From the IMG/VR virus record IMGVR_UViG_3300044631_000780, positions 1 to 64,000 of that record: 64,000 bases of DNA. One strand, written 5' to 3'. The DNA comes from a virus. Made by a program: the position numbers and the translations under genes. Numbering within the stretch: the first letter of the stretch is position 1; every line of letters starts with the position of its first letter. The notes below the pieces were generated by a model. The model did no database searches and was not told the DNA's origin. It saw only the letters and a list, made by a program, of their open reading frames with translations. This document shows, piece after piece, positions 1,403 to 51,053 of this stretch.

Positions 1403-1828
1403 TCAGTAGTCGCTGAAGATAGCAACTTGCCGATACTTCACTTCACAAGAGGTGAAATCGTAGCGCAAGTTGCTATCGTAGGTTGCCTGCCAATCAATCA
1501 CCAAACCATCGGGAACATCCATGGTTTCGTTATAGTAATCTTCAGCGAAGTCTGCCTCAGATTCGAACCAACCACGGAAGCGTTCATCGCAACCTTCGAT
1601 GTAATCAATGCCCTGTTCTTCGATGAGAGCATCTACGGCATCATAACCGATAGACTCACCACAGCGGCAATATTCTTCATAATGGGCAACAAAATCGCTC
1701 TCGTCGTGCTCATCAATGAACTCCAACATGTCATCGAGAGCATAATTCTCTTCTAGCAATTCATCAACCTTCTCAACAGTGTCAGCGTTGAGAGTTTCCT
1801 TGTAGTTAGCAGTCAAGGTGATGGACAT
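1403..1828 (-). CDS. ArdA-like antirestriction protein, 141 aa
   Basis: A very acidic protein (many Asp/Glu, few Lys/Arg), as expected of a DNA-mimic antirestriction protein. The C-terminal part, with FESEADFAEDYYNET, then WQATYDSNLRYDFT and an aromatic end, resembles the last domain of ArdA (typically about 165 aa), which blocks type I restriction enzymes by mimicking bent DNA. This copy is shorter and its N-terminal domain is not clearly ArdA-like. It has its own promoter module (E) with an approximately 110-nt leader. The assignment rests on pattern recognition and acidity, so it is moderate. Confidence 0.5.
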   Translation of the reverse strand: MSITLTANYKETLNADTVEKVDELLEENYALDDMLEFIDEHDESDFVAHYEEYCRCGESIGYDAVDALIEEQGIDYIEGCDERFRGWFESEADFAEDYYNETMDVPDGLVIDWQATYDSNLRYDFTSCEVKYRQVAIFSDY

Positions 1829-18465: not shown

Positions 18466-18522
18466 AGTATAGGGTCAATCCAGCTCGGACAGGGCACTCT
18501 GTAGACAGTTCCACAACTGGCA
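18466..18522 (-). promoter_or_regulatory. Palindrome/-10 promoter module O
   Basis: -10 TATACT at 18466-18471; 20-mer TGCCAGTTGTGGAACTGTCT at 18503-18522; 31-bp gap. The palindrome lies in the coding sequence of 18475-18669. Confidence 0.75.
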
Positions 18523-18669
18523 CTGTACAGCGATGTCATCCACGCCATGGTGCTTTGCTGTGCTGCGAGCATCACGGGCATCGTGACCCCACATCAGGTC
18601 AATCAGAAACTTGATCTGCTGGGTGTCTAGGGTCACGTTGGTGACCACAGAGGGGCAAGGATAGGTCAT
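18475..18669 (-). CDS. Hypothetical protein, 64 aa
   Basis: Starts MTYPCPSVVTNVTLDTQQIK; ends in an acidic SALSELD. The phrase LDTQQIKFLIDLMW and DARSTAKHHGVDD suggests helices. It directly follows the methyltransferase gene (5 bp). Function unknown. Confidence 0.55.
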   Translation of the reverse strand: MTYPCPSVVTNVTLDTQQIKFLIDLMWGHDARDARSTAKHHGVDDIAVQCQLWNCLQSALSELD

Positions 18670-18674
18670 AGGGG

Positions 18675-19577
18675 TTAGAGGGGGGTTACAGGCGCTCCTA
18701 GAGGGATCTCAGAGCATTCGGATGCTACTCGGTCATGAGCGATTTGGCAATAGTGCTGGTCAAGGTCAACACCAACGAACTGGCGCCCCAGGCGCACAGC
18801 AGCAACACCAGTGCTGCCAGAACCACAGAACGGGTCAAGCACCGTGGAATTGACAGGAGAATAGATCTTGATAAGATATTCCATCAAACTCAGTGGTTTG
18901 ACTGTAGGATGGTCGTTGCCTTCACCTTTCTCTTTGCGTGTGGCACGAGGAGCATAGAAATACTTTTGGTGCTCTGGTTCTACCTCACCAATGATATTAG
19001 ATGGATAACGACCAGCTGGATTAGCATCTACTGTACCACACTCAGCACCAGAACCTTTGGTGTTACCATCACGACCAAATGTACGGCGACTGGCACCACC
19101 TTTTACCCAACCAGTGGGAGGTTTCTTATCCCATGGCACACGGGTATTCTCAACATCAATGAGACCACATCCCCACTGCTCAAAGTTATCTTTGAGAGTG
19201 CCAGAATAAGGTTTCTGTGCTACAACGATCGGTTCATGTGCTGGTTTCAACCGATTATGCTTGGGCATCTTCGTGGTAGTCATCCACATAATCTGATCTT
19301 TGATTGTAAAACCAGCATCTTCAACATTACATGCCAGACGGTGATACAATTCAGGTGAACAGAAAGCTAGGCAAAAAGCACCAGGACGAAGTGTACGAAA
19401 CACCTCTTGCCAAATGTCTACACTGGGCACAGAATGATCCCAGTGATCCATACCCATGCCATAGGGAGGATCAGTGATACATGAGTGAAATGAATTCTCA
19501 TCATAGGTAGAGAGAATTTCCTGGCAATTACCAGTCAAAATTGAGAACTCGTTGTTCACAGTAGGCACGTTGTTCAT
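18675..19577 (-). CDS. Beta-class DNA methyltransferase (adenine-N6 or cytosine-N4), 300 aa
   Basis: Catalytic motif DPPY at residues 36-39, then the target-recognition middle, and near the C-terminus the AdoMet-binding motif DPFCGSGSTG followed by VGVDLD. Motif IV before motif I is the beta-class order of DNA N6-adenine/N4-cytosine methyltransferases. HPTVKP before motif I is typical of this class. I chose ATG 19577; an upstream extension would only read the nuclease gene in another frame. It overlaps the PD-(D/E)XK gene by 50 bp, the arrangement expected for a modification gene with its restriction partner. It could alternatively protect phage DNA against host restriction. Part of unit P. 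Confidence 0.9.
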   Translation of the reverse strand: MNNVPTVNNEFSILTGNCQEILSTYDENSFHSCITDPPYGMGMDHWDHSVPSVDIWQEVFRTLRPGAFCLAFCSPELYHRLACNVEDAGFTIKDQIMWMTTTKMPKHNRLKPAHEPIVVAQKPYSGTLKDNFEQWGCGLIDVENTRVPWDKKPPTGWVKGGASRRTFGRDGNTKGSGAECGTVDANPAGRYPSNIIGEVEPEHQKYFYAPRATRKEKGEGNDHPTVKPLSLMEYLIKIYSPVNSTVLDPFCGSGSTGVAAVRLGRQFVGVDLDQHYCQIAHDRVASECSEIPLGAPVTPL

Positions 19578-20061
19578 GAGTGAAATAGTTAGTTTTTGTT
19601 TTACCGCCAGATTGAGTATACATCGCCCGCATGTAGAAGTCAAATCCACGATCATCTTCAGACCACTCATCATCTACCTGATAGGTCTTTAGAACAGCAT
19701 TAAGATCTTCTACAAGTTGAGCATACATCTCACGCTTACGATCAGAAACTACATCGTCAGCAAAATAGATGGTAGTTTCATTGTACTTTTTACTGCTAAA
19801 GATGTAGACTACACCTTTCTTAGGAAGACCGCCGTTGTAGGTAGGAAAAGGTTGCTGAGAAGATTTACACTCAATGTCTACAGTTTTACCAGAGGGAAGA
19901 TGAACGCGAAAATCAGGAGAGTTTTGCTCACCATTCGGTTGATAGTCATACTTGTAACCAAACTTATCAAGCAGCGCACGAACTTGCTGCTCATGAAGTG
20001 GATTATCTTGAGAGTTAGATTTGTATGGGAGGAGCAAAACCTCTTGCCAAAATTGTTTCAT
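19528..20061 (-). CDS. PD-(D/E)XK nuclease-like protein, probable restriction endonuclease, 177 aa
   Basis: Pro49-Asp50 followed by a strand and Glu64-Cys65-Lys66 fits PD-x13-ExK: NSPDFRVHLPSGKTVDIECK, then SSQQPFPTYNGG. The layout (helix, PD strand, turn, ExK strand, then conserved YNGGLPKKG) is that of small type II restriction enzymes. About 177 aa is in range. The stop region overlaps the DNA methyltransferase start by 50 bp. Reaction inferred: cleavage of a specific unmethylated DNA site, Mg-dependent. The recognition sequence cannot be told from the sequence. A non-restriction nuclease (repair or host-DNA degradation) is the alternative. Confidence 0.65.
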   Translation of the reverse strand: MKQFWQEVLLLPYKSNSQDNPLHEQQVRALLDKFGYKYDYQPNGEQNSPDFRVHLPSGKTVDIECKSSQQPFPTYNGGLPKKGVVYIFSSKKYNETTIYFADDVVSDRKREMYAQLVEDLNAVLKTYQVDDEWSEDDRGFDFYMRAMYTQSGGKTKTNYFTHEQRAYCEQRVLNFDW

Positions 20062-20063
20062 GA

Positions 20064-20345
20064 TTAAACGAACTGAAGGACGCTAGGACGTAAAGGTTTT
20101 AGGATTTGCATGGCACTATAAGGTGTGGTATCTTGAATGTCAACCACTTTGCCAACAGTTTTAGCATTTACTGGCGCATAATAGCACCGTTTCTTTGTAT
20201 CATAGAAACCCCAGATAGACTTAGGAGTTTCATCAGTGTAGCTAAACTGACCATGATTACAGATCCATATAGCAACCATGTTACGTTTATGTTCTGTAGT
20301 CTCGTAAGAGTATCCGTGCGGAGGTGTATGCGGAAATTCAAACAT
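20064..20345 (-). CDS. Hypothetical protein, 93 aa
   Basis: Starts MFEFPHTPPHGYSYETTEHK, then KRNMVAIWICNHGQFSYTDE and TKKRCYYAPVNAKTVGKVVD. A beta-rich protein of a type seen in cyanophages (function unknown). It sits 2 bp upstream of the nuclease gene in the same unit. Confidence 0.65.
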   Translation of the reverse strand: MFEFPHTPPHGYSYETTEHKRNMVAIWICNHGQFSYTDETPKSIWGFYDTKKRCYYAPVNAKTVGKVVDIQDTTPYSAMQILKPLRPSVLQFV

Positions 20346-20762: not shown

Positions 20763-20820
20763 ATTATGCCACAAAAAAAGGGGTCTTGACCAGACCCCTG
20801 TGCCACTTGCTCAACTGTCC
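20763..20820 (-). promoter_or_regulatory. Palindrome/-10 promoter module P with nested terminator
   Basis: -10 CATAAT at 20763-20768; 20-mer GGACAGTTGAGCAAGTGGCA at 20801-20820; 32-bp gap that contains a complete terminator hairpin (20773-20798). It serves 20517-20738 and the restriction-modification-like genes. Confidence 0.7.
20773..20798 (-). terminator. Rho-independent terminator in module P
   Basis: On the minus strand GGGGTCT / AAGACCCC pairs around a short loop and is followed by a run of seven T. It ends transcripts of unit Q (after 20863-21132) yet sits between the palindrome and the -10 of the next promoter. Confidence 0.85.
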
Positions 20821-20862
20821 CCAAATACTGGGTGAATTTCAGTTTTAGCATGTTCTGTCATG

Positions 20863-21132
20863 TTAACATGCTGCTCCCACAAGATCGCATCCTCTAGATT
20901 GTAGAAAATAGCTTGTTGTTTTGCCTTCTTGTTCTTCTTTTGTTTGATCCACACAACAGCGTACTTCATTCCAATGCTCACGAAAAACTAGTAAATTTGC
21001 CTGATACCTACCATTATGCTTGGTTTTATCAGGAATGTCAAGGAAACAAATTGTGATGTAATCTGAATCAATAAAATTGACCCATCCACGAGTATTACGA
21101 TACTCTACGAAAGTGCCATATTTAAGTTCCAT
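20863..21132 (-). CDS. Hypothetical protein, 89 aa
   Basis: ATG 21132 overlaps the upstream stop (TGATG). MELKYGTFVEYRNTRGWVNF begins a beta-rich, Cys-containing protein ending GCDLVGAAC; the opening resembles an SH3-like barrel (Y-G-x-x-V-E-Y...G-x-V-x-F). Last gene of unit Q. Function unknown. Confidence 0.6.
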   Translation of the reverse strand: MELKYGTFVEYRNTRGWVNFIDSDYITICFLDIPDKTKHNGRYQANLLVFREHWNEVRCCVDQTKEEQEGKTTSYFLQSRGCDLVGAAC

Positions 21133-21329
21133 CAATTGATTTCTTCAAAAAATTTGCGTGTTTGTTTTTCTGCCTCTGGCAGTTTGAACCACTCTCGCAT
21201 GTTATTAAGATCAGTAATTTGTTTTTGTAGTTGATCTATCTGTGCTTGTAGAATTTGAAAATTATGATCATTGTTATTTTGCATCATCAGCAGATTTTTT
21301 ACTGCCTCTTTAAACTCTTCTTCAGTCAT
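21132..21329 (-). CDS. Coiled-coil protein, 65 aa
   Basis: Starts MTEEEFKEAVKNLLMMQNNN; a heptad-rich helix FQILQAQIDQLQKQITDLNN should form a coiled coil. Overlaps 21322-21471. Function unknown. Confidence 0.65.
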   Translation of the reverse strand: MTEEEFKEAVKNLLMMQNNNDHNFQILQAQIDQLQKQITDLNNMREWFKLPEAEKQTRKFFEEIN

Positions 21330-23117: not shown

Positions 23118-24209
23118 TCAAAAATACATACGAAAGGGTTCAGTTTCACCTTCAATTTGATCCTTTACCCAAATTTCCATGTTGAAATCATTAAGCGTTT
23201 TACGATAAATGATATCTGGATTGAGAATATTTTCAATTGGTTTCAAAGCACTGTCACGACGAAGTTCCCACTGATTCATAATCTTTTCTCGGAATACTTT
23301 GCGAGAGTTAGCAATCTTTTTGGATTGTTTGTTAGACTGATTATACAAGAGAACCTTGATTAACTTTTCAGAACCATATTCTTTCTCAACTTCACAGACT
23401 TTACGGGTAATATCATCAGCATATTTGGAAAGAAATCCACTATTATCTTCAATAGCTTTGACAATATAAACCGTAGTTTCAGTCACAGTTCCATCTGGTT
23501 GCCACTCTTTAGATTCTTCAATAAAATTGTTGATAGCATCTTTATCAGTATCATAAGACATTTTGTTAGCAACAGTATTGGGATCGCCAAGTTCCCCTAA
23601 AACATCAGTGATAATGCGGTTGATAACAGATTTGTTAAAACCATAACGCTCTTGAACTCCCATATAGTTAAGAACTTCACCAACTTGCTGTCTATCTGGA
23701 GAAATATCTTCATTTTTAAAGATACTAACAGCAGCTGCTACAAAGTGGTGATCCTTGGCATCATCTTTGATCGGACCAAAAACATTTCCCCAGACACCAG
23801 CCATGGTAAGAATGGAATCTGTAGAAAACTCATTTATCATATCAAATCCTTCTGGAAAGACCCGTTCATATTGAGCAGCGGGAACATCAATAACAGAAGA
23901 AAGTGCCTTAAGAACTTTTAGCGTGTGGCGACGATCAAAAATCTTCAAAAAACCTTTGATGTTTAAATACGGAATAGGAAGAGAAGTTCTATCCCATCCA
24001 TCTGGCAAAGATCCACTAAGACCAGTAATCTTAGAATCATCTGTACCATACATTCCACGAACAAGATTGTCAGTTACTTCCAACAAGTTCTTTGAGACCA
24101 TCTCAAAGCATACCAGTCGTAAGAAGGGAAATTTTACGAAAATATCATCATCTGCATCTACACGCAGATCTTGGATACTAAAAGTACCCCATTCTAATTG
24201 TTTTGCCAT
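23118..24209 (-). CDS. Hypothetical protein with ParB-like pattern, 363 aa
   Basis: ATG 24209 (MAKQLEWGTFSIQDLRVDAD) follows GGAGATTCC; the longer frame lies within the promoter region. The PYLNIKGFLKIFDRRHTLKV segment (about residues 80-100) resembles the ParB/Srx-type box (hydrophobic strand, F-D-R/G-R-H) used by ParB-fold DNA-binding and nuclease proteins. The rest is helical and basic toward the end (KQSKKIANSRKVFREKIMNQ). Monocistronic with a near-consensus sigma-70 promoter and a terminator, so it is probably one of the most highly expressed early genes here. ParB-like is tentative. Confidence 0.5.
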   Translation of the reverse strand: MAKQLEWGTFSIQDLRVDADDDIFVKFPFLRLVCFEMVSKNLLEVTDNLVRGMYGTDDSKITGLSGSLPDGWDRTSLPIPYLNIKGFLKIFDRRHTLKVLKALSSVIDVPAAQYERVFPEGFDMINEFSTDSILTMAGVWGNVFGPIKDDAKDHHFVAAAVSIFKNEDISPDRQQVGEVLNYMGVQERYGFNKSVINRIITDVLGELGDPNTVANKMSYDTDKDAINNFIEESKEWQPDGTVTETTVYIVKAIEDNSGFLSKYADDITRKVCEVEKEYGSEKLIKVLLYNQSNKQSKKIANSRKVFREKIMNQWELRRDSALKPIENILNPDIIYRKTLNDFNMEIWVKDQIEGETEPFRMYF

Positions 24210-24255
24210 TTGGAATCTCCAAGATAGAGCATAAAATGCTCCGATGTACAAACTA

Positions 24256-24284
24256 ATAATAACACGGTTTTGGGGGAGTGTCAA
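24256..24284 (-). promoter_or_regulatory. Consensus sigma-70 promoter, no palindrome
   Basis: -35 TTGACA (24279-24284), 17-bp spacer, -10 TATTAT (24256-24261). The -35 lies in the loop and flank of a GGGGG...CCCCC inverted repeat. No 20-mer palindrome is present. It serves 23118-24209 and would be read by host RNA polymerase at once. Confidence 0.85.
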
Positions 24285-35104: not shown

Positions 35105-38100
35105 CAGAGTTCAGTCAACCACCAACCTTGATACGTAGCAGGAATAAAGTTATCTCCATCAGTTTGTCCAACATAGATTAGACCAAATGAAGCGTTCTTA
35201 TTCTGAACTACTAGTTCTCCAGAAGCATATGGAGTTGATAAACCACCCAATCTAGTTCCTTCAGTATCACCTTGAATTGCTACTGGTTCACCTCCAACAA
35301 TTGGAGCACGAATTACTAGAGAGTTGTTGTATGTTAGTTGTCCACCAACTTCAGTAATCCTGATTGTATCTCCAGTTTTTGGATTGGATGGTAAGGTCAG
35401 AACAAGAGCACCTGTAGAAGGAGCTACTGCTACAATATAATTTATATTGACTTGAAGAGTGGTATTTGCGTTCACAAACTTGGTGATATGACCACCATTT
35501 GAATTCTTCCATCCTTCATATCCAAAAGCATCAACAGAGCAATCTTGTCTAATTGTGAAATTCTTCGTTCCACCATCTCCAAGATTTCTGATATCTAGGA
35601 TCTTTTGAGATTGAGCAGCAATACTGGAACTAATACCAGCAACATCAAGCAGACGACCAACAAATGTATCACCAAAGTTTGGTTCTACTCTAAACGTTGG
35701 TAAGAATGATCTATTACTAAACTGAATAGCATCTGGTTCTTCAACACAAGTTGTTGGGAACACTCTAAACAATCCACTAACATCTGTAGCAGCATTGATA
35801 GAAAGTTTTCCTCCTTCAAAATGGTGCTCTTCGTTGTTAACTAGATTAATAATTGGAACATTGTTGTCAGTGCCGCTAATTCTAAAGTTAGATCCGACAA
35901 AATTTACATCATCATATACTGTTAGGCGACCATGATGATAATCTTTCTTGACTAGTTTTGTTCCACCATCATTTGTGATTGTACTTGTAACTTCAAATAC
36001 TTCACTGTCAATAACCATGAAATATTCACGATCCAAGAAGAATGGAACAAGATCACTGTTCTTTAATCCAATTTCAATATTTGTTCCGCCAGTTGTTCCA
36101 ATAGCAGATGTTGTAGTTGTTGTTTCTCTAATGAGAACTCTCCATACACTTTCACCATCTTGGTGAGTTTTAGCAGTTCCAGCAAGAGGAGAACGAGTTA
36201 CAGGTAAGTAACCAGAGTTTCCAGAAGTTGCTACTGGATTTGAAGAAATTCTCATAAATTCTTCATTTCCACCAGAACCGTACCCAACTAAGATATAATC
36301 ACCATTGGCAAAATCACTAATATCATCAACTGGTAGTTGGGTTGCGCTTGTAGTAATCGCAGTAACAGTATCAACAAATGTTGTTGCGATAGAGTTATCA
36401 ACCTTTGGATCTTTCAAGATTACATAAACAGTTGCTCCACTGGAATGTGCCGCTACGCTAGTACCAAACTTTGCTCTCTGAGCAAGAATTGTTCCGCTAG
36501 GATTACCAACAATAGTGTCTCCAGAGCAAGCGTCAACAGAGAAAATATCACGAACTCTATCAGTAATACTGAACTTTTCATTCTTATTGGCAACAAATGT
36601 AATACCTTCCTGACTACCAGTTCCAGTGAATGGAAGATTTAGTGTAATTGTAGAACCGCTAATGCTTACAACTTGTGGATCTGTTAGTCTAGTTTCACCA
36701 GAATCAATCGGGAATCTATTTTGAGTTAATGTTACAGTTCCGCCGCCTGTCACAATTTGAACATAATCTCCAACTTCAATACCAGAAGTATTCGTAACAG
36801 CAGTGATAGTTGTCAATCCAGCTTGAGCATTTCCAGTAAACTGCTGCGAAGAAGCAGTCTTACATCCACCAACGAAAGTAAATGATCCATTGACAGTTAA
36901 TTTGCCATTCTCTCCAGAAACACCATCATTACCAATAATTGTTTCACCAGTTACACTATCAACAGAGAAGAGAACGTTTCCATTTGGACATCCGCTTAGG
37001 ATAGAGAATGTCTTGTTCTCTTGAACCAAAGTAGAAACTAGTTTAAATACCTCACCCTGATCAAATACTCCATCACTATTTGTATCAGTACGATCAATAA
37101 CAATATAGTCAACCCCAGTTCTTAAGGTTCCACCAAACGTTGCCAGATAAACATTTTCGGTAGTTCCAGAAGCATCAATTGATTGCTCAGTCCAAGTAGC
37201 ATCAAACGCGATGTTACACTTATAAATTGGAGTTCTATTGTTTGGTTCATCTGGATGATTGGTCTTAACCGCTGTAAATGTTCCCAGTGGTCTTCTTTGA
37301 ACTGTTAAGTAATATGGAGCAGTTTCAGCTCCCGCCAATCCACCAGGAGCAACACGTAGAATTTCTGGATGAGTTCCAGCAACAGAATCAACAACTGTAT
37401 CAAGGATCAGATAATCACCCTCTCTGAAGTAATCTCCAGGTGGATTTAGAAGTGGTAAGTAGTATAGATCTCCAGTTAGTGCTGGAAGATCAGATCCTTC
37501 TGGACCACCACCAGGAATTAGTTCTTGGAAATCAGTGCTGCCCCAATCAGCAGAACCTGCTGTATCCAATCTATTAAAGTTAGGATCACTATCAGGAACT
37601 TGAAGAACATTAATCAAATCTACATTTTGATTAAATGTTGTTGGTCCAAGAATACCATCATCATGAGCAAAAGCGGTTGTTCCCAACTGTGCTCTATTGG
37701 CGGTGAATGAGAACGCAGCGACGCCACCACAGAGATGAACATTACCATTGAAAATTGTTTCACCATCAATCTCCAAACTATTTCTAATGGTTGTTGTTCC
37801 ACCCTGACCAGCAATTCTAACCTCAGAAGCATTCAAGGCAAAATCCATCGTCTGGGTATTGCCAGAGAAGAAACTTACAATTCCTGCTTCTGTGCTTAGA
37901 GTTACAACTTGCTCTGGATTTGTTCTGTCACCACCAAGAGACTTAAATGAACCAAATGTTACATCTCCAGCAAACTTGACTTGTTTTGTTTCAAAGTCAA
38001 CGTAGCTGAGTGATGATAGGCGATCATAAGCACCACCAATCTTGGTCTTAGAAATAGCAGCATCTCTATCAATGTTACCAATGAATAGATTACTGTGATT

Positions 38101-47997: not shown

Positions 47998-48014
47998 ATG
48001 TTTTTTGAAACAAC

Positions 48015-48088
48015 ACTCTCTGTAGGATTCGAACCTACGACACCTTGATCCGTAGTCAAGTGCTCTATATCCACTGAGCTAAGAGAGT
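48015..48088 (-). tRNA. tRNA-Arg (ACG)
   Basis: 74 nt; 7-bp acceptor ACTCTCT / AGAGAGT, anticodon loop CTACGGA, T-arm GTAGG-TTCGAAT-CCTAC. No CCA encoded. Confidence 0.95.
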
Positions 48089-48091
48089 AGG

Positions 48092-48163
48092 CGAAGGGTG
48101 AGAGATTCGAACTCCCATCGCAAGGTTTTGGAGACCTGCATCTTACCGTTAGACCAACCCAAC
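48092..48163 (-). tRNA. tRNA-Trp (CCA)
   Basis: 72 nt; anticodon loop CTCCAAA. The acceptor (GTTGGGT / ACCCTTC) has two U-U mismatches, an oddity that may indicate decay or editing. T-arm GGGAG-TTCGAAT-CTCTC. Confidence 0.85.
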
Positions 48164-48166
48164 TGG

Positions 48167-48238
48167 TTCTGAGGGTAGGATTCGAACCCACGAATGGCGG
48201 GACCAAAACCCGCTGCCTTACCGCTTGGCGACCTCAGA
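48167..48238 (-). tRNA. tRNA-Gln (TTG)
   Basis: 72 nt; anticodon loop TTTTGGT; acceptor TCTGAGG / CCTCAGA; discriminator A. Confidence 0.95.
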
Positions 48239-48242
48239 ATGG

Positions 48243-48313
48243 GGTGACGTATGGGAATTGAACCCATCTAGGTGGTTCCACAAACCACTGCCTTACCACT
48301 AGGCTAACGTCAC
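48243..48313 (-). tRNA. tRNA-His (GTG)
   Basis: 71 nt; anticodon loop TTGTGGA; acceptor GTGACGT / ACGTCAC; discriminator C, as in His tRNAs. Confidence 0.95.
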
Positions 48314-48314
48314 A

Positions 48315-48388
48315 TAGCAGTAGGTAGATTTGAACTACCGACCATAGGCGTATGAAACCCGTGCTCTGCCAGACTGAGCTATACTGCT
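48315..48388 (-). tRNA. tRNA-Met (CAT)
   Basis: 74 nt; anticodon loop TTCATAC; acceptor AGCAGTA / TACTGCT; discriminator A. CAT could also be read as Ile2 (lysidine-modified) rather than Met. Confidence 0.85.
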
Positions 48389-48475
48389 AAAATGGACGCT
48401 GACCTGCTGGTTACTCTTTCTGCGGAGGGAGGCGTCAGTCTTTTATATCCGAGCAAGCACCTTGCTGGAGTCCTA

Positions 48476-48562
48476 CGGAAGATGTTGGATTCGAACCAAC
48501 GGAAAGATTACTCCTTCGACGGTTTAGCAAACCGTTGCTTTAGACCTCTCAGCCAATCTTCC
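48476..48562 (-). tRNA. tRNA-Ser (GCT)
   Basis: 87 nt with the long variable arm of serine tRNAs; anticodon loop TTGCTAA; acceptor GGAAGAT / ATCTTCC. The 87 nt before it (48389-48475) hold no recognisable gene; they contain a short AGCAAG...CTTGCT hairpin. Confidence 0.95.
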
Positions 48563-48566
48563 AAAG

Positions 48567-48638
48567 TGGAACCGACAAGATTTGAACTTGTGACCGCTCG
48601 GTTATCAGCCGAGTGCTCTACCACTGAGCTACGATTCC
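48567..48638 (-). tRNA. tRNA-Ile (GAT)
   Basis: 72 nt; anticodon loop CTGATAA; acceptor GGAATCG / CGGTTCC; discriminator A. Confidence 0.95.
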
Positions 48639-48641
48639 AAA

Positions 48642-48713
48642 TAGTCTCAACGGGACTTGAACCCGTGTCTACACTGTGAAAGAGTGTTGTCCTAACCACT
48701 AGACGATGAGACC
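48642..48713 (-). tRNA. tRNA-Glu (TTC)
   Basis: 72 nt; anticodon loop CTTTCAC; acceptor GGTCTCA / TGAGACT with a terminal G-U pair. Confidence 0.95.
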
Positions 48714-48716
48714 ATA

Positions 48717-48790
48717 CGACCCATACGGGATTCGAACCCGTGATCTCCACCGTGACAGGGTGGCGTGATAAGCCGCTACACTAATGGGTC
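48717..48790 (-). tRNA. tRNA-Asp (GTC)
   Basis: 74 nt; anticodon loop CTGTCAC; acceptor GACCCAT / ATGGGTC; discriminator G. Confidence 0.95.
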
Positions 48791-48794
48791 AAGG

Positions 48795-48876
48795 TGGGAG
48801 GAACAGGATTTGAACCTGTGAAGGCAGAGCCGTCTGATTTACAGTCAGATTCCTTTAACCACTCGGAAATCCTCCC
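48795..48876 (-). tRNA. tRNA-Tyr (GTA)
   Basis: 82 nt with a long variable arm; anticodon loop CTGTAAA; acceptor GGGAGGA / TCCTCCC; discriminator A. Confidence 0.95.
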
Positions 48877-48880
48877 ACGA

Positions 48881-48953
48881 TGGGTCTGGTCGGGCTCGAA
48901 CCGACGACTTACAGGTTAAAAGCCCGCTACTCTACCAACTGAGTTACAGACCC
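48881..48953 (-). tRNA. tRNA-Lys (TTT)
   Basis: 73 nt; anticodon loop CTTTTAA; acceptor GGGTCTG / CAGACCC; discriminator A. Confidence 0.95.
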
Positions 48954-49017
48954 AAAGGGTTAAATTGTCAAGGTGCTGGTCGGGGTGGTTCCCCTTCCGT
49001 TGATGGATGTATCATAG

Positions 49018-49050
49018 CAAAAGGGGGCGGTTTTTGACCTGCCCCCCTGA
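49018..49050 (-). terminator. GC-rich terminator after 49080-49181
   Basis: On the minus strand GGGGGCAGG / CC-GCCCCC with one bulge and a 7-nt A-rich loop, followed by TTTT. It follows the small late gene and separates it from the downstream tRNA genes. Confidence 0.7.
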
Positions 49051-49079
49051 TAAATCTTGCTTATGTGTCAGATGTTAGA

Positions 49080-49181
49080 TCATCGTTTCCACTTATGAGC
49101 AAGCAGGGGCGCTTGAGCGATATGCCAATAGCGGCAATCGCTTTCCATAATAATATCAATTTGCTTGCTGAAGTTAGACAT
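49080..49181 (-). CDS. Small protein in a late unit, 33 aa
   Basis: ATG at 49181, TGA at 49080-49082. Begins MSNFSKQIDIIMESDCRYWH, ends basic (HKWKR). It has an exact TATAAATA late promoter 22 bp upstream of its ATG and a terminator after it, so it is a self-contained late unit between tRNA genes. Function unknown. Confidence 0.6.
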   Translation of the reverse strand: MSNFSKQIDIIMESDCRYWHIAQAPLLAHKWKR

Positions 49182-49203
49182 GATTTTCGACCTTTAGTGT
49201 GTT

Positions 49204-49211
49204 TATTTATA
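49204..49211 (-). promoter_or_regulatory. T4-type late promoter TATAAATA
   Basis: Exact TATAAATA on the minus strand, immediately upstream of the 33-aa gene at 49080-49181. Confidence 0.8.
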
Positions 49212-49224
49212 AGGGTTTTTGAAA

Positions 49225-49296
49225 CTGGGGCGGCGGGATTCGAACCTGCAACCGATCGGTTAACAGCCGATAGCTCTGCCGTTGAGCTACACCCCA
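49225..49296 (-). tRNA. tRNA-Asn (GTT)
   Basis: 72 nt; anticodon loop CTGTTAA; acceptor TGGGGTG / CGCCCCA; discriminator G. Confidence 0.95.
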
Positions 49297-49302
49297 ATGA
49301 AA

Positions 49303-49473
49303 TCAGGACTGTTGAGTGTCCATCATATATTCTACAGTATTTGCTATGTCATTCATAGCATCACGTAGATGTGGTTGTTGTCCGCTTTCTTGACGAACAA
49401 TTGGTCTATGATCATCTGTGAGTGACCAGCGCCATTGTTTCATTATAGCACAGTACCACAGATTAATTTTCAT
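49303..49473 (-). CDS. Hypothetical protein, 56 aa
   Basis: ATG 49473 (MKINLWYCAIMKQWRWSLTD); the longer frame would read the neighbouring gene. Trp/Arg-rich, with a C-terminal acidic helix (LRDAMNDIANTVEYMMDTQQ). Between two tRNA genes. Function unknown. Confidence 0.55.
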   Translation of the reverse strand: MKINLWYCAIMKQWRWSLTDDHRPIVRQESGQQPHLRDAMNDIANTVEYMMDTQQS

Positions 49474-49618
49474 GTTTGAAACTTTCCAATCGAATCCAGT
49501 TGGCAAGGGCGTTAAGTTGCATTCTTTTGTCTTCAGTAAAGTCATATTTTTTATTAAAAAGATAGAACTCAATTGCTTCAAGTGCTAATTGTCTGTCTGC
49601 TTGTGAAATGAGTGACAT
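49463..49618 (-). CDS. Hypothetical helical protein, 51 aa
   Basis: ATG 49618 (MSLISQADRQLALEAIEFYL), helical, ending KHEN. Overlaps 49303-49473 by 11 bp. A TATACT-like -10 lies directly upstream. Function unknown. Confidence 0.55.
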   Translation of the reverse strand: MSLISQADRQLALEAIEFYLFNKKYDFTEDKRMQLNALANWIRLESFKHEN

Positions 49619-49637
49619 AGTGAGTATATAGAACTCA

Positions 49638-49710
49638 TGGAGAATAGGAGACTCGAACTCCTGACAGCCTGCTTGCAAAGCAGGTGCTCTACCAACTGAG
49701 CTAATTCCCC
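49638..49710 (-). tRNA. tRNA-Ala (TGC)
   Basis: 73 nt; anticodon loop TTTGCAA; acceptor GGGGAAT / ATTCTCC; discriminator A. Confidence 0.95.
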
Positions 49711-49720
49711 TAATGGTAGG

Positions 49721-49753
49721 AGGGGGGAGCATCACCTTAAGCCCCCCTCTTTA
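49721..49753. terminator. GC-rich hairpin, possible two-way terminator
   Basis: AGGGGGG ... CCCCCCT with a 14-nt loop; on the plus strand followed by TCTTTA, on the minus strand by T/C-rich sequence. It lies between tRNA-Ala and the small ORF at 49774-49863. Confidence 0.5.
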
Positions 49754-49773
49754 CTTCACTTAGCCACAGAATA

Positions 49774-49863
49774 CTAGACCAAGGAGAGGTTTTGGTTCCT
49801 ACATTTGGGGGGATGATCGGACTTCACCCAGAAGGCAAAGTCCTTAAGACCCTGCCAAATCAT
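49774..49863 (-). CDS. Possible microprotein with 5' structured RNA, 29 aa
   Basis: Open frame from ATG 49863 (with AAGGGG just upstream) reading MIWQGLKDFAFWVKSDHPPK to TAG at 49774-49776. The first 60 nt also form a strong hairpin: GGGGATGAT pairs with ATCATCCCC, with a second stem inside (GGACTT / AAGTCC). It could be a small coding gene, a structured RNA, or a decayed tRNA; no T-arm consensus is present. Confidence 0.35.
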   Translation of the reverse strand: MIWQGLKDFAFWVKSDHPPKCRNQNLSLV

Positions 49864-49916
49864 CCCCTTACGACGCTACGGAAGATACCCGTAGTAGAAG
49901 TTGGCATTACTGCCAA

Positions 49917-49990
49917 AGCCCAAGGTCGGACTTGAACCGACGACCTACGGTTTACAAAACCGTTGCTCTATCCAGCTGAGCTACTCAGGC
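49917..49990 (-). tRNA. tRNA-Thr (TGT)
   Basis: 74 nt; anticodon loop TTTGTAA; acceptor GCCTGAG / CTTGGGC with G-U pairs; discriminator T. Its 5' end overlaps the stop region of the CpeT-like gene by 10 nt. Confidence 0.95.
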
Positions 49991-50505
49991 ATTTTTACAA
50001 ATTTGAATGCTCCCCAGTCAGAACCCCAAATTTTTTCATGTGTCTCTGCGTGTAATCCACGATCAACAACATGATATTCAGTTTTAGTAAGAGTGACTTC
50101 GTTTTGAACATAGGTTTTTATACCTTGCCAATCAACCCAGCACTCACAGGTGGAGGTTCCACCCTGGAACATTTCAGGTCCCGTCTGTGTCATAATAATA
50201 TCACATCCCTCTCGGTATGTCAAGATGTCATCTGTGATGAGTTCAAGGTTTTGACACTCAACAAATCTAGAAGCATCTTGGATTTCGTAGTTTTTGAGAC
50301 GGAACTGCCCCTTCTCAACCTCTACATCAATCACAAACTGACGATATGGGTTATTTAGAAGGTAATTGTATGCTTGTTCTCCATAGAAACGATAATCGGA
50401 AATTTTCCGATGTTGTACCCGAATATGAGCATAACGAGTAGGATGAGATTGTGCTTGCCGTTTGTTAGCAAAGGTTCCTTCAAGATATTCAAGAAACTGG
50501 TTCAT
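49981..50505 (-). CDS. cpeT: CpeT/CpcT-like phycobiliprotein bilin lyase, 174 aa
   Basis: Matches the CpeT/CpcT layout: N-terminal L-x-G-x-F-x-N-K-x-Q-A then HPTRYAHIRV, YGEQAY and PYRQFVIDVE, a GCDIIMTQTG turn, MFQGGTSTCECW, and the end YHVVDRGLHAETHEKIWGSD with WGAFKF. CpeT-type lyases attach phycoerythrobilin or phycocyanobilin to a Cys of phycobiliproteins. It is a known cyanophage auxiliary gene in phages of phycobilisome-bearing Synechococcus. Length normal. It lies among tRNA genes and overlaps tRNA-Thr by 10 nt. Confidence 0.85.
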   Translation of the reverse strand: MNQFLEYLEGTFANKRQAQSHPTRYAHIRVQHRKISDYRFYGEQAYNYLLNNPYRQFVIDVEVEKGQFRLKNYEIQDASRFVECQNLELITDDILTYREGCDIIMTQTGPEMFQGGTSTCECWVDWQGIKTYVQNEVTLTKTEYHVVDRGLHAETHEKIWGSDWGAFKFVKMPE

Positions 50506-50770
50506 CGGGTAAAACTTCGGGATTAACTAAATCTAACTCAAACAATACGGGGTGGCATTCTTCAGCAATCAAATAATCAGAATAACGGAAGATATCTTCC
50601 ATAGTATATTCTTGATTGAGTGCTGCTTCTGCTAAGATCCACTTATCGTGTTTCTCGTTTTCTTCTAAGATGTCAAAAGCAAATGGTATGTTCTCAATAT
50701 AATACATCAGCACAGGTTCGCTGTCAACAAAGACATGCTTTCGAGTGATGGTGTATCTGAAAACTGCCAT
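50489..50770 (-). CDS. Hypothetical acidic protein, 93 aa
   Basis: Starts MAVFRYTITRKHVFVDSEPV, mixed alpha/beta, acidic C-terminal half. Overlaps the CpeT-like gene by 17 bp, so the two are likely co-expressed, from a TGTAAATA late-like element at 50801-50808. Function unknown. Confidence 0.6.
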   Translation of the reverse strand: MAVFRYTITRKHVFVDSEPVLMYYIENIPFAFDILEENEKHDKWILAEAALNQEYTMEDIFRYSDYLIAEECHPVLFELDLVNPEVLPDEPVS

Positions 50771-50800
50771 TACATTTGATCTCTCAAAATTTCCTGTTAC

Positions 50801-50808
50801 TATTTACA
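50801..50808 (-). promoter_or_regulatory. Late-like promoter element TGTAAATA
   Basis: One mismatch to TATAAATA, 30 bp before the ATG of 50489-50770, which leads the CpeT-like pair. Suggestive only. Confidence 0.35.
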
Positions 50809-50814
50809 CAGGAA

Positions 50815-50887
50815 TACCCGTGGTCGGATTCGAACCGACACTGGAGGGATTTTAAGTCCCCTGTCTCTGCCGTTGGACTACACGGGC
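50815..50887 (-). tRNA. tRNA-Leu (TAA)
   Basis: 73 nt; anticodon loop CTTAAAA; acceptor GCCCGTG / CACGGGT (terminal G-U pair); variable loop only about 5 nt, far shorter than normal Leu tRNAs. Confidence 0.85.
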
Positions 50888-50891
50888 AAGG

Positions 50892-50964
50892 TGCTCCTTG
50901 AGGGGATCGAACCCACCTTAGGCGAATTATGAGTTCGCTGCATTCACCAGATTGCTAAAGGAGC
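50892..50964 (-). tRNA. tRNA-Met (CAT), second copy
   Basis: 73 nt; anticodon loop CTCATAA; acceptor GCTCCTT / AAGGAGC. Different body from the other CAT tRNA (48315-48388); one may be Ile2 or an initiator form. Confidence 0.85.
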
Positions 50965-50967
50965 GAA

Positions 50968-51039
50968 TGGGGATACTGGGAGTTGAACCCAGACTAACCC
51001 GTTATAAGCAGGCCGCTCTAACCATTAAGCTATACCCCC
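50968..51039 (-). tRNA. tRNA-Ile (TAT)
   Basis: 72 nt; anticodon loop CTTATAA; acceptor GGGGGTA / TATCCCC; discriminator A. Reads AUA, complementing the GAT copy. Confidence 0.9.
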
Positions 51040-51053
51040 ATAAAATTAGGGCA

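What the first reader, a model, noticed from the sequence alone, without database searches (positions are those of the whole stretch)
18675..20061. Putative phage-encoded restriction-modification pair: PD-(D/E)XK nuclease overlapping a beta-class DNA methyltransferase
The nuclease candidate (19528-20061) has P49-D50 and E64-C-K66, and its 3' end overlaps the methyltransferase gene by 50 bp. Both are in a unit driven by promoter P. Phages usually carry lone methyltransferases; a complete pair in a lytic cyanophage could exclude other phages or degrade unmodified host DNA. An ArdA-like antirestriction gene lies in the same region, which suggests an arms race over restriction.
Basis: partly seen in the sequence, partly recalled or inferred. 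Interest (0 to 1): 0.8.

Follow-up and report, generated by a model that had tools for sequence, protein, structure and literature searches.

The report
Cyanophage type II restriction-modification gene pair
This virus of cyanobacteria carries what looks like a complete restriction-modification pair (a DNA-cutting enzyme and the DNA-marking enzyme that would protect its own genome), sitting at a spot where related viruses swap in other such pairs.

Summary
The two overlapping genes are real. The 177-aa protein folds confidently as a PD-(D/E)XK nuclease (pLDDT 90.7; best matches EcoRV, I-Ssp6803I, Holliday-junction resolvases). Its P49-D50/E64-C65-K66 motif is invariant in 61 distinct pairs; dN/dS is about 0.13. 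The partner is a clear beta-class DNA methyltransferase. The pairing is not chance: the same nine public phage records hold both genes at 60% identity or more, and 56 of 72 distinct nuclease genes in IMG/VR have this methyltransferase in the same locus. At the same syntenic spot related phages carry other nuclease-methyltransferase pairs, some annotated as restriction endonucleases, often with a ParB-fold gene in between. TGCA is the 4-mer most depleted in pair-bearing genomes (median obs/exp 0.34 versus 0.75) and is a candidate target, but one close relative without the pair is depleted too. Best reading: a type II R-M system carried by T4-like cyanophages. Whether it destroys host DNA or rival phages is unknown; no activity was tested. 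The 'ArdA in the same region' claim fails (sub-threshold, 17 kb away). Virus-borne R-M pairs are known; the swap locus with a ParB-like third gene is the less expected part.

The parts
19528..20061 (-). PD-(D/E)XK nuclease, 177 aa, candidate type II restriction endonuclease (phrog_18119, unknown function)
18675..19577 (-). Beta-class N6-adenine-type DNA methyltransferase (PF01555); ORF open from 19673, start at 19577 most likely, a later GTG start is possible
19528..19577 (-). 50-nt overlap of the two genes, candidate translational coupling; 22-50 nt in relatives
   Evidence: S-SKS1 annotation
20064..20345 (-). Small gene directly upstream of the nuclease, phrog_573, unknown function; in S-CAM4, L147, ACG-2014i and others it lies elsewhere, so not part of the pair
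18475..18669 (-). Conserved downstream flank of the locus (phrog_9334), shared with S-CAM4, ACG-2014i, S-RSM4
20811..20981 (-). Conserved upstream flank of the locus (MKYAVVW... protein), shared with S-CAM4, L034, L147, L149, ACG-2014i, S-RSM4
20863..21135 (-). Second conserved upstream flank gene (MMELKYG... protein)
20779..20799 (-). Terminator-like hairpin (AGGGGTCTGGTCAAGACCCCT + T run), possible upstream boundary of the transcription unit; consensus match only
20115..20143 (-). Sigma-70-like match TTGACA-17-TATAGT upstream of the nuclease; consensus match only

Best explanation
The two genes are a phage-borne type II restriction-modification system. The methyltransferase (probably N6-adenine, from its DPPY motif) marks a short site in the phage's own DNA. 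The 177-aa PD-(D/E)XK enzyme, probably a dimer like other small type II enzymes, cuts the same site where it is unmarked. Translational coupling through the overlap would keep the two proteins in step. The most likely recognition site is TGCA (candidate only). Since the carrier belongs to the lytic T4-like cyanomyoviruses, the likely targets are the unmarked host chromosome (as for chlorovirus enzymes) and/or unmarked competing phages (as argued for marseilleviruses). The cassette sits at a swap locus where relatives carry other R-M pairs, often with a ParB-fold gene between nuclease and methyltransferase. Shown by computation: fold family, invariant catalytic residues, purifying selection, linkage and co-inheritance, locus swapping, TGCA depletion. 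Inferred: cleavage, methylation, shared specificity, dimerisation, coupling, biological purpose.
For: Nuclease model pLDDT 90.7, pTM 0.86; structural matches are dominated by PD-(D/E)XK enzymes: EcoRV Z 7.7, I-Ssp6803I 7.8, Hjc/RecU 6-7, NhoI/HhaI/HincII about 6. P49, D50, E64, K66 plus H23, E24, Q41, P42, G44 invariant in 61 distinct pairs; dN/dS 0.129 (nuclease) and 0.16 (methyltransferase); distance matrices correlate r = 0.70, permutation maximum 0.36. The same nine phage records (60% identity or more) hold both genes. IMG/VR: 56 of 72 distinct nuclease genes have this methyltransferase in the locus, 38 adjacent or overlapping; 56 of 65 methyltransferase genes have the nuclease. Three exceptions (L147, L149, L164) carry a different PD...ECK nuclease that is a distant relative (hhalign 94%, E 9e-8). 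At the same syntenic locus S-RSM4 and ACG-2014i carry a gene that RefSeq calls 'restriction endonuclease II' with a gamma-type methyltransferase, and ACG-2014j US23 carries annotated 'R.RsaI endonuclease' overlapping 'DNA adenine methylase'. The only non-cyanophage relative in the phage collection (25%, E 6e-3) lies beside a Helicobacter type II methyltransferase (687 bits). TGCA ranks first of 136 4-mers for depletion in pair-bearing genomes: median obs/exp 0.34 versus 0.75, p 6e-5 with 8 controls, 1.4e-4 with 12; 0.08 in the window.
Against: No sequence match to any named restriction enzyme in Pfam, NCBIfam, PADLOC or PDB. Fold Z values are below 8, so the superfamily is well supported but the sub-family (restriction enzyme, homing enzyme or resolvase) is not fixed by fold. 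Ten distinct nuclease genes with at least 2.5 kb seen downstream lack this methyltransferase there; some such contigs have it about 10 kb away (G003, G004, G008), others show none in 44- and 28-kb fragments. TGCA is equally depleted (0.36) in ACG-2014j US23, a close relative of S-CAM4 (0.34) that carries the RsaI-type pair instead, so host or lineage effects are not excluded. No biochemical data.
Confidence: 0.78

Rival explanations
1. The nuclease is a free-standing homing endonuclease with a PD-(D/E)XK fold (like I-Ssp6803I) that spreads its own gene, and the methyltransferase is an orphan neighbour.
For: Best single fold match is I-Ssp6803I (Z 7.8, tied with EcoRV); nuclease genes at boundaries of genetic exchange are known in phages (PMC10448857); the locus is clearly a site of gene exchange.
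Against: A homing gene need not travel with a methyltransferase, yet 56 of 72 nuclease genes do and the two are co-inherited. When the nuclease is replaced, it is by another nuclease next to a methyltransferase, including annotated restriction enzymes. The cyanophage homing enzyme F-CphI uses an Endo VII motif, not PD-(D/E)XK (PMC6083498).
Confidence: 0.07
2. The nuclease acts in DNA repair, recombination or general host-DNA breakdown (resolvase-like, not site-specific), and the methyltransferase is an unrelated self-protection enzyme against host restriction.
For: Holliday-junction resolvases (Hjc, RecU) score Z 6-7; nuclease-only loci exist; lone methyltransferases are common in phages (one search shows 1565 records with relatives).
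Against: Tight linkage and overlap with one methyltransferase subfamily; replacement by other R-M pairs at the same locus.
Confidence: 0.1
3. The pair was once an R-M system but the nuclease is now inactive or kept for another role, with only the methyltransferase working as an anti-restriction shield.
For: One contig (G021) has the nuclease split by a frame change while the methyltransferase stays adjacent.
Against: dN/dS 0.13 and fully invariant catalytic residues in 61 distinct pairs; G021 may be a sequencing error.
Confidence: 0.05

Closest known systems
Cyanophage R-M pairs already annotated: 'restriction endonuclease II' + DNA methyltransferase (S-RSM4, P-SSM4, ACG-2014i) and 'R.RsaI endonuclease' + DNA adenine methylase (ACG-2014j US23)
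   Same: Nuclease and methyltransferase side by side in T4-like cyanophages; S-RSM4 and ACG-2014i share the window's flanking genes
   Different: Nuclease and methyltransferase families differ; the window's nuclease family is annotated 'hypothetical protein' in every annotated record found
Chlorovirus R-M systems (PMC7019647) and the marseillevirus GATC system (PMC7253447)
   Same: Virus-encoded adjacent methyltransferase and restriction endonuclease; candidate roles are host-DNA degradation or exclusion of rival viruses
   Different: Eukaryotic viruses; activities were shown experimentally there; sequence relationship not tested here
EcoRV-type PD-(D/E)XK type II restriction endonucleases
   Same: Fold (Z 7.7, 116 residues, 3.0 A) and PD...(D/E)XK motif
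   Different: 10-16% identity in the structural alignments, 177 aa rather than about 245 aa; specificity unknown
I-Ssp6803I, PD-(D/E)XK homing endonuclease
   Same: Fold (Z 7.8, 112 residues)
   Different: The window protein is linked to a methyltransferase and overlaps its gene
ParB / Noc / KorB N-domain proteins (for the third gene found in relatives, not in the window)
   Same: Model of family a/b matches ParB Z 8.5, then Noc, KorB, PadC, sulfiredoxin; conserved DG-x-x-R / G-x-H-R motif
   Different: No sequence-level family match; sits between nuclease and methyltransferase

Membership tests
Type II restriction endonuclease | Restriction-type nuclease fold with intact active site | tested here: met
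   AF2 pLDDT 90.7, PD-(D/E)XK matches; P49, D50, E64, K66 invariant
Type II restriction endonuclease | Gene adjacent to a DNA methyltransferase, inherited together | tested here: met
   56 of 72 distinct genes; r = 0.70
Type II restriction endonuclease | Sequence similarity to a characterised restriction enzyme | tested here: inconclusive
   None in Pfam, NCBIfam, PADLOC, PDB; weak relative beside a Helicobacter type II methyltransferase. Restriction enzymes are often unrelated in sequence, so absence does not exclude
Type II restriction endonuclease | Cuts a short specific site, blocked by the partner's methylation | not testable with these tools
   Needs purified protein; TGCA depletion is a candidate signal only
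Beta-class DNA methyltransferase (N6_N4_Mtase) | DPPY motif before the SAM-binding FxGxG motif; PF01555 above cut-off | tested here: met
   128.6 bits against a cut-off of 26.7; TDPPY, then DPFCGSGSTG in the sequence
Beta-class DNA methyltransferase (N6_N4_Mtase) | Methylates the site cut by the partner nuclease | not testable with these tools
   Needs methylation sequencing
PD-(D/E)XK homing endonuclease | Fold | tested here: met
   I-Ssp6803I Z 7.8; not discriminating, tied with EcoRV
PD-(D/E)XK homing endonuclease | Gene mobile on its own, without a modification partner | tested here: inconclusive
   The locus is a swap site but the nuclease usually travels with a methyltransferase
ArdA antirestriction protein (neighbour claim) | PF07275 above cut-off near the pair | tested here: not met
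   13.7 bits against 27, at 1403-1828, about 17 kb away

The most novel reading that the evidence does not exclude
T4-like cyanophages have a syntenic 'R-M swap locus' where unrelated restriction nucleases, unrelated methyltransferases and a third, ParB-fold protein are exchanged in a modular way. The ParB-like protein, found between nuclease and methyltransferase in at least two unrelated R-M families, is a working third component (for example a DNA-sliding regulator or a timing or specificity factor) of phage-borne R-M systems, which serve as weapons in contests between phages.
Probability: 0.3. Interest if true: 0.75.

Novelty: new member of a known kind. Interest (0 to 1): 0.55.

Why it matters
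If active, lytic cyanophages carry complete and exchangeable restriction systems, which makes phage-encoded restriction of host or competing phage DNA a testable factor in cyanobacterial infection. It suggests a function for an unannotated protein family (phrog_18119), proposes a recognition site (TGCA), and points to a hotspot where R-M pairs of different kinds replace each other, with an unexplained ParB-fold gene often inserted between the two enzymes.

Tried and rejected
Cellular relatives: one scan of genome contigs with the nuclease alignment found none (only two peptide patterns were used, so weak evidence). Sequence search of PDB with the nuclease or its profile: only chance matches. 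ArdA in the window: sub-threshold. The window protein 23121-24209 was tested as a possible ParB-like third gene: no match to families a, b or c. Family c of the third gene shows no profile link to families a/b and was not folded; its ParB character rests on a DSHTR motif only. T4-type late promoter TATAAATA: 2 sites in the window, not more than chance. Palindrome depletion: GGCC, AGCT and CCGG depletion does not track the pair. Literature: no paper found in the held library that describes this cyanophage pair. Foldseek in 'pdb' gave no E below 0.001 for the nuclease; the superfamily call rests on the consistent top of the list plus the motif. A first version of the co-inheritance script failed and was rerun.

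Full report
What is there. The window lies in a 65.7-kb IMG/VR virus record. It carries T4-like cyanomyovirus genes and a 17-tRNA cluster, and its best DNA matches are S-RSM4, S-CAM4 and ACG-2014 phages. On the minus strand, ORF 19528-20061 (177 aa) overlaps by 50 nt a methyltransferase gene that most likely starts at 19577 and ends at 18675.

The methyltransferase. PF01555 N6_N4_Mtase at 128.6 bits against a cut-off of 26.7. The catalytic DPPY lies before the SAM-binding FCGSGSTG, the beta-class order; DPPY favours N6-adenine (background knowledge).

The nuclease. No named family matches by sequence except phrog_18119 of unknown function. AlphaFold2 with 34 window and IMG/VR sequences gives pLDDT 90.7. 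Foldseek and VIA-align put EcoRV, I-Ssp6803I, Holliday-junction resolvases, NhoI, HhaI and HincII near the top, with Z 6 to 7.8; human Rep15 (Z 7.5) is an unrelated row among them. Z values below 8 alone would not be decisive, but most of the leading families share one superfamily and the motif residues are invariant in 61 distinct pairs. Against viral models the best hits include an uncharacterised Micromonas pusilla virus protein and proteins named PD(D/E)XK endonuclease.

Is the pairing meaningful? In the public phage collection, nine records hold the nuclease at 60% identity or more and the same nine hold the methyltransferase at 60% or more (S-CAM4, ACG-2014j, S-SKS1, AG-345-F15). In IMG/VR, 72 distinct nuclease genes were collected: 56 have the methyltransferase in the same locus, 38 of them adjacent or overlapping and 18 separated, mostly by 1.05-1.5 kb. 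Of 65 distinct methyltransferase genes, 56 have the nuclease; of six without it but with upstream sequence, three carry a different PD...ECK nuclease, two have the nuclease elsewhere on the same contig, and one has none. The loci were found by searching with these very proteins and the lists were cut at the best 80, so the fractions are descriptive. Nuclease and methyltransferase distances correlate (r = 0.70; maximum of 2000 permutations 0.36). dN/dS is 0.13 and 0.16.

A swap locus. The genes around the window's pair (MKYAVVW and MMELKYG proteins upstream, phrog_9334 downstream) also flank: nuclease + third gene c + methyltransferase in S-CAM4; nuclease + third gene b + methyltransferase in L034; a different nuclease (nucB) + third gene c + the same methyltransferase in L149; a 'restriction endonuclease II' + third gene a + gamma-type methyltransferase in ACG-2014i; the same type with third gene c in S-RSM4. 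The gamma-type methyltransferase of ACG-2014i ends in nearly the same tail (ETPPRSPTSVLNHL) as the S-CAM4 beta-type enzyme (ETPPQSPTSVLNHL), which suggests recombination at the cassette edge. In ACG-2014j isolate US23, at a similar genome position, 'R.RsaI endonuclease' overlaps 'DNA adenine methylase' (flanks not re-tested there). P-SSM7 has third gene b, a PADLOC type II restriction-enzyme match (E 2e-7), and two genes annotated as DNA adenine methylase within about 4 kb. So at least two further restriction-modification types occur in this setting.

The third gene. It is absent from the window. In relatives one extra gene (ORFs of 317-500 aa) fills the gap between nuclease and methyltransferase. 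Families a and b are homologous (hhalign 97.7%, E 1.4e-12); c is not detectably related. The a/b model (pLDDT 75.5) matches ParB Z 8.5, then Noc, KorB, PadC and sulfiredoxin, i.e. the ParB/Srx fold. Whether it is a functional part of the system or a passenger is open.

Candidate target site. Over 15 pair-bearing genomes and 8 cyanophages without the pair, TGCA is the 4-mer with the strongest difference in observed/expected counts (median 0.34 versus 0.75, Mann-Whitney p 6e-5, rank 1 of 136). The window has 28 TGCA sites, obs/exp 0.08. With four more controls, including freshwater S-CRM01 (1.12) and S-CBWM1 (0.77), p = 1.4e-4. The caveat is important: ACG-2014j US23, which carries the RsaI-type pair and not this one, is as depleted (0.36) as its close relative S-CAM4 (0.34), so host- or lineage-driven avoidance remains possible. 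Genomes are not independent and controls were few.

How it probably works. Methyltransferase marks the phage's own sites; nuclease cuts unmarked sites in the host chromosome or in competing phages. Two precedents point different ways: chlorovirus enzymes are packaged and are held responsible for degrading host DNA, and were found not to be responsible for mutual exclusion (PMC7019647); the marseillevirus system does not degrade host DNA and was proposed to exclude rivals (PMC7253447). Nothing in the sequence decides between these.

Verdict. As a phage-borne R-M pair it is a new member of a known kind; the modular swap locus with a ParB-fold third gene is the more surprising part.

Noticed in passing
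L024, L034, L149, L194, L203 (cassette interior): A ParB/sulfiredoxin-fold gene (families a, b; family c by motif only) sits between nuclease and methyltransferase in relatives of two unrelated R-M types; not present in the window.
   Followed up: partly
L149:4280-4957, L147:4108-4818, L164 (L201): A second nuclease family (225-236 aa, STPDF...ECKS) replaces the window-type nuclease upstream of the same methyltransferase.
   Followed up: partly
window 1-64000: CCGG is completely absent from 64 kb of the window (also from 50 kb each of ACG-2014d, S-RIM8, Syn19) but normal in S-SKS1 and S-CAM4; TCGA is absent from 50 kb of ACG-2014d. Looks like avoidance of restriction sites.
   Followed up: partly
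window 1403-1828 (-): 141-aa acidic protein with sub-threshold ArdA similarity; a related protein lies downstream of the nuclease in L025-L027, which lack the methyltransferase.
   Followed up: partly
window 48013-51040 (-): Cluster of 17 tRNA genes.
   Followed up: no
window 23118-24284 (-): 363-388 aa protein with no Pfam or PHROG match next to the ResIII-type helicase gene.
   Followed up: partly
G021 (locus L066) 35250-35778: Nuclease gene interrupted by a frame change while the methyltransferase stays adjacent: recent loss or sequencing error.
   Followed up: no
L072:3890-5510: Helicobacter phage record with a type II methyltransferase overlapping by 8 nt a distant relative of the nuclease; the neighbouring genes look bacterial.
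   Followed up: partly
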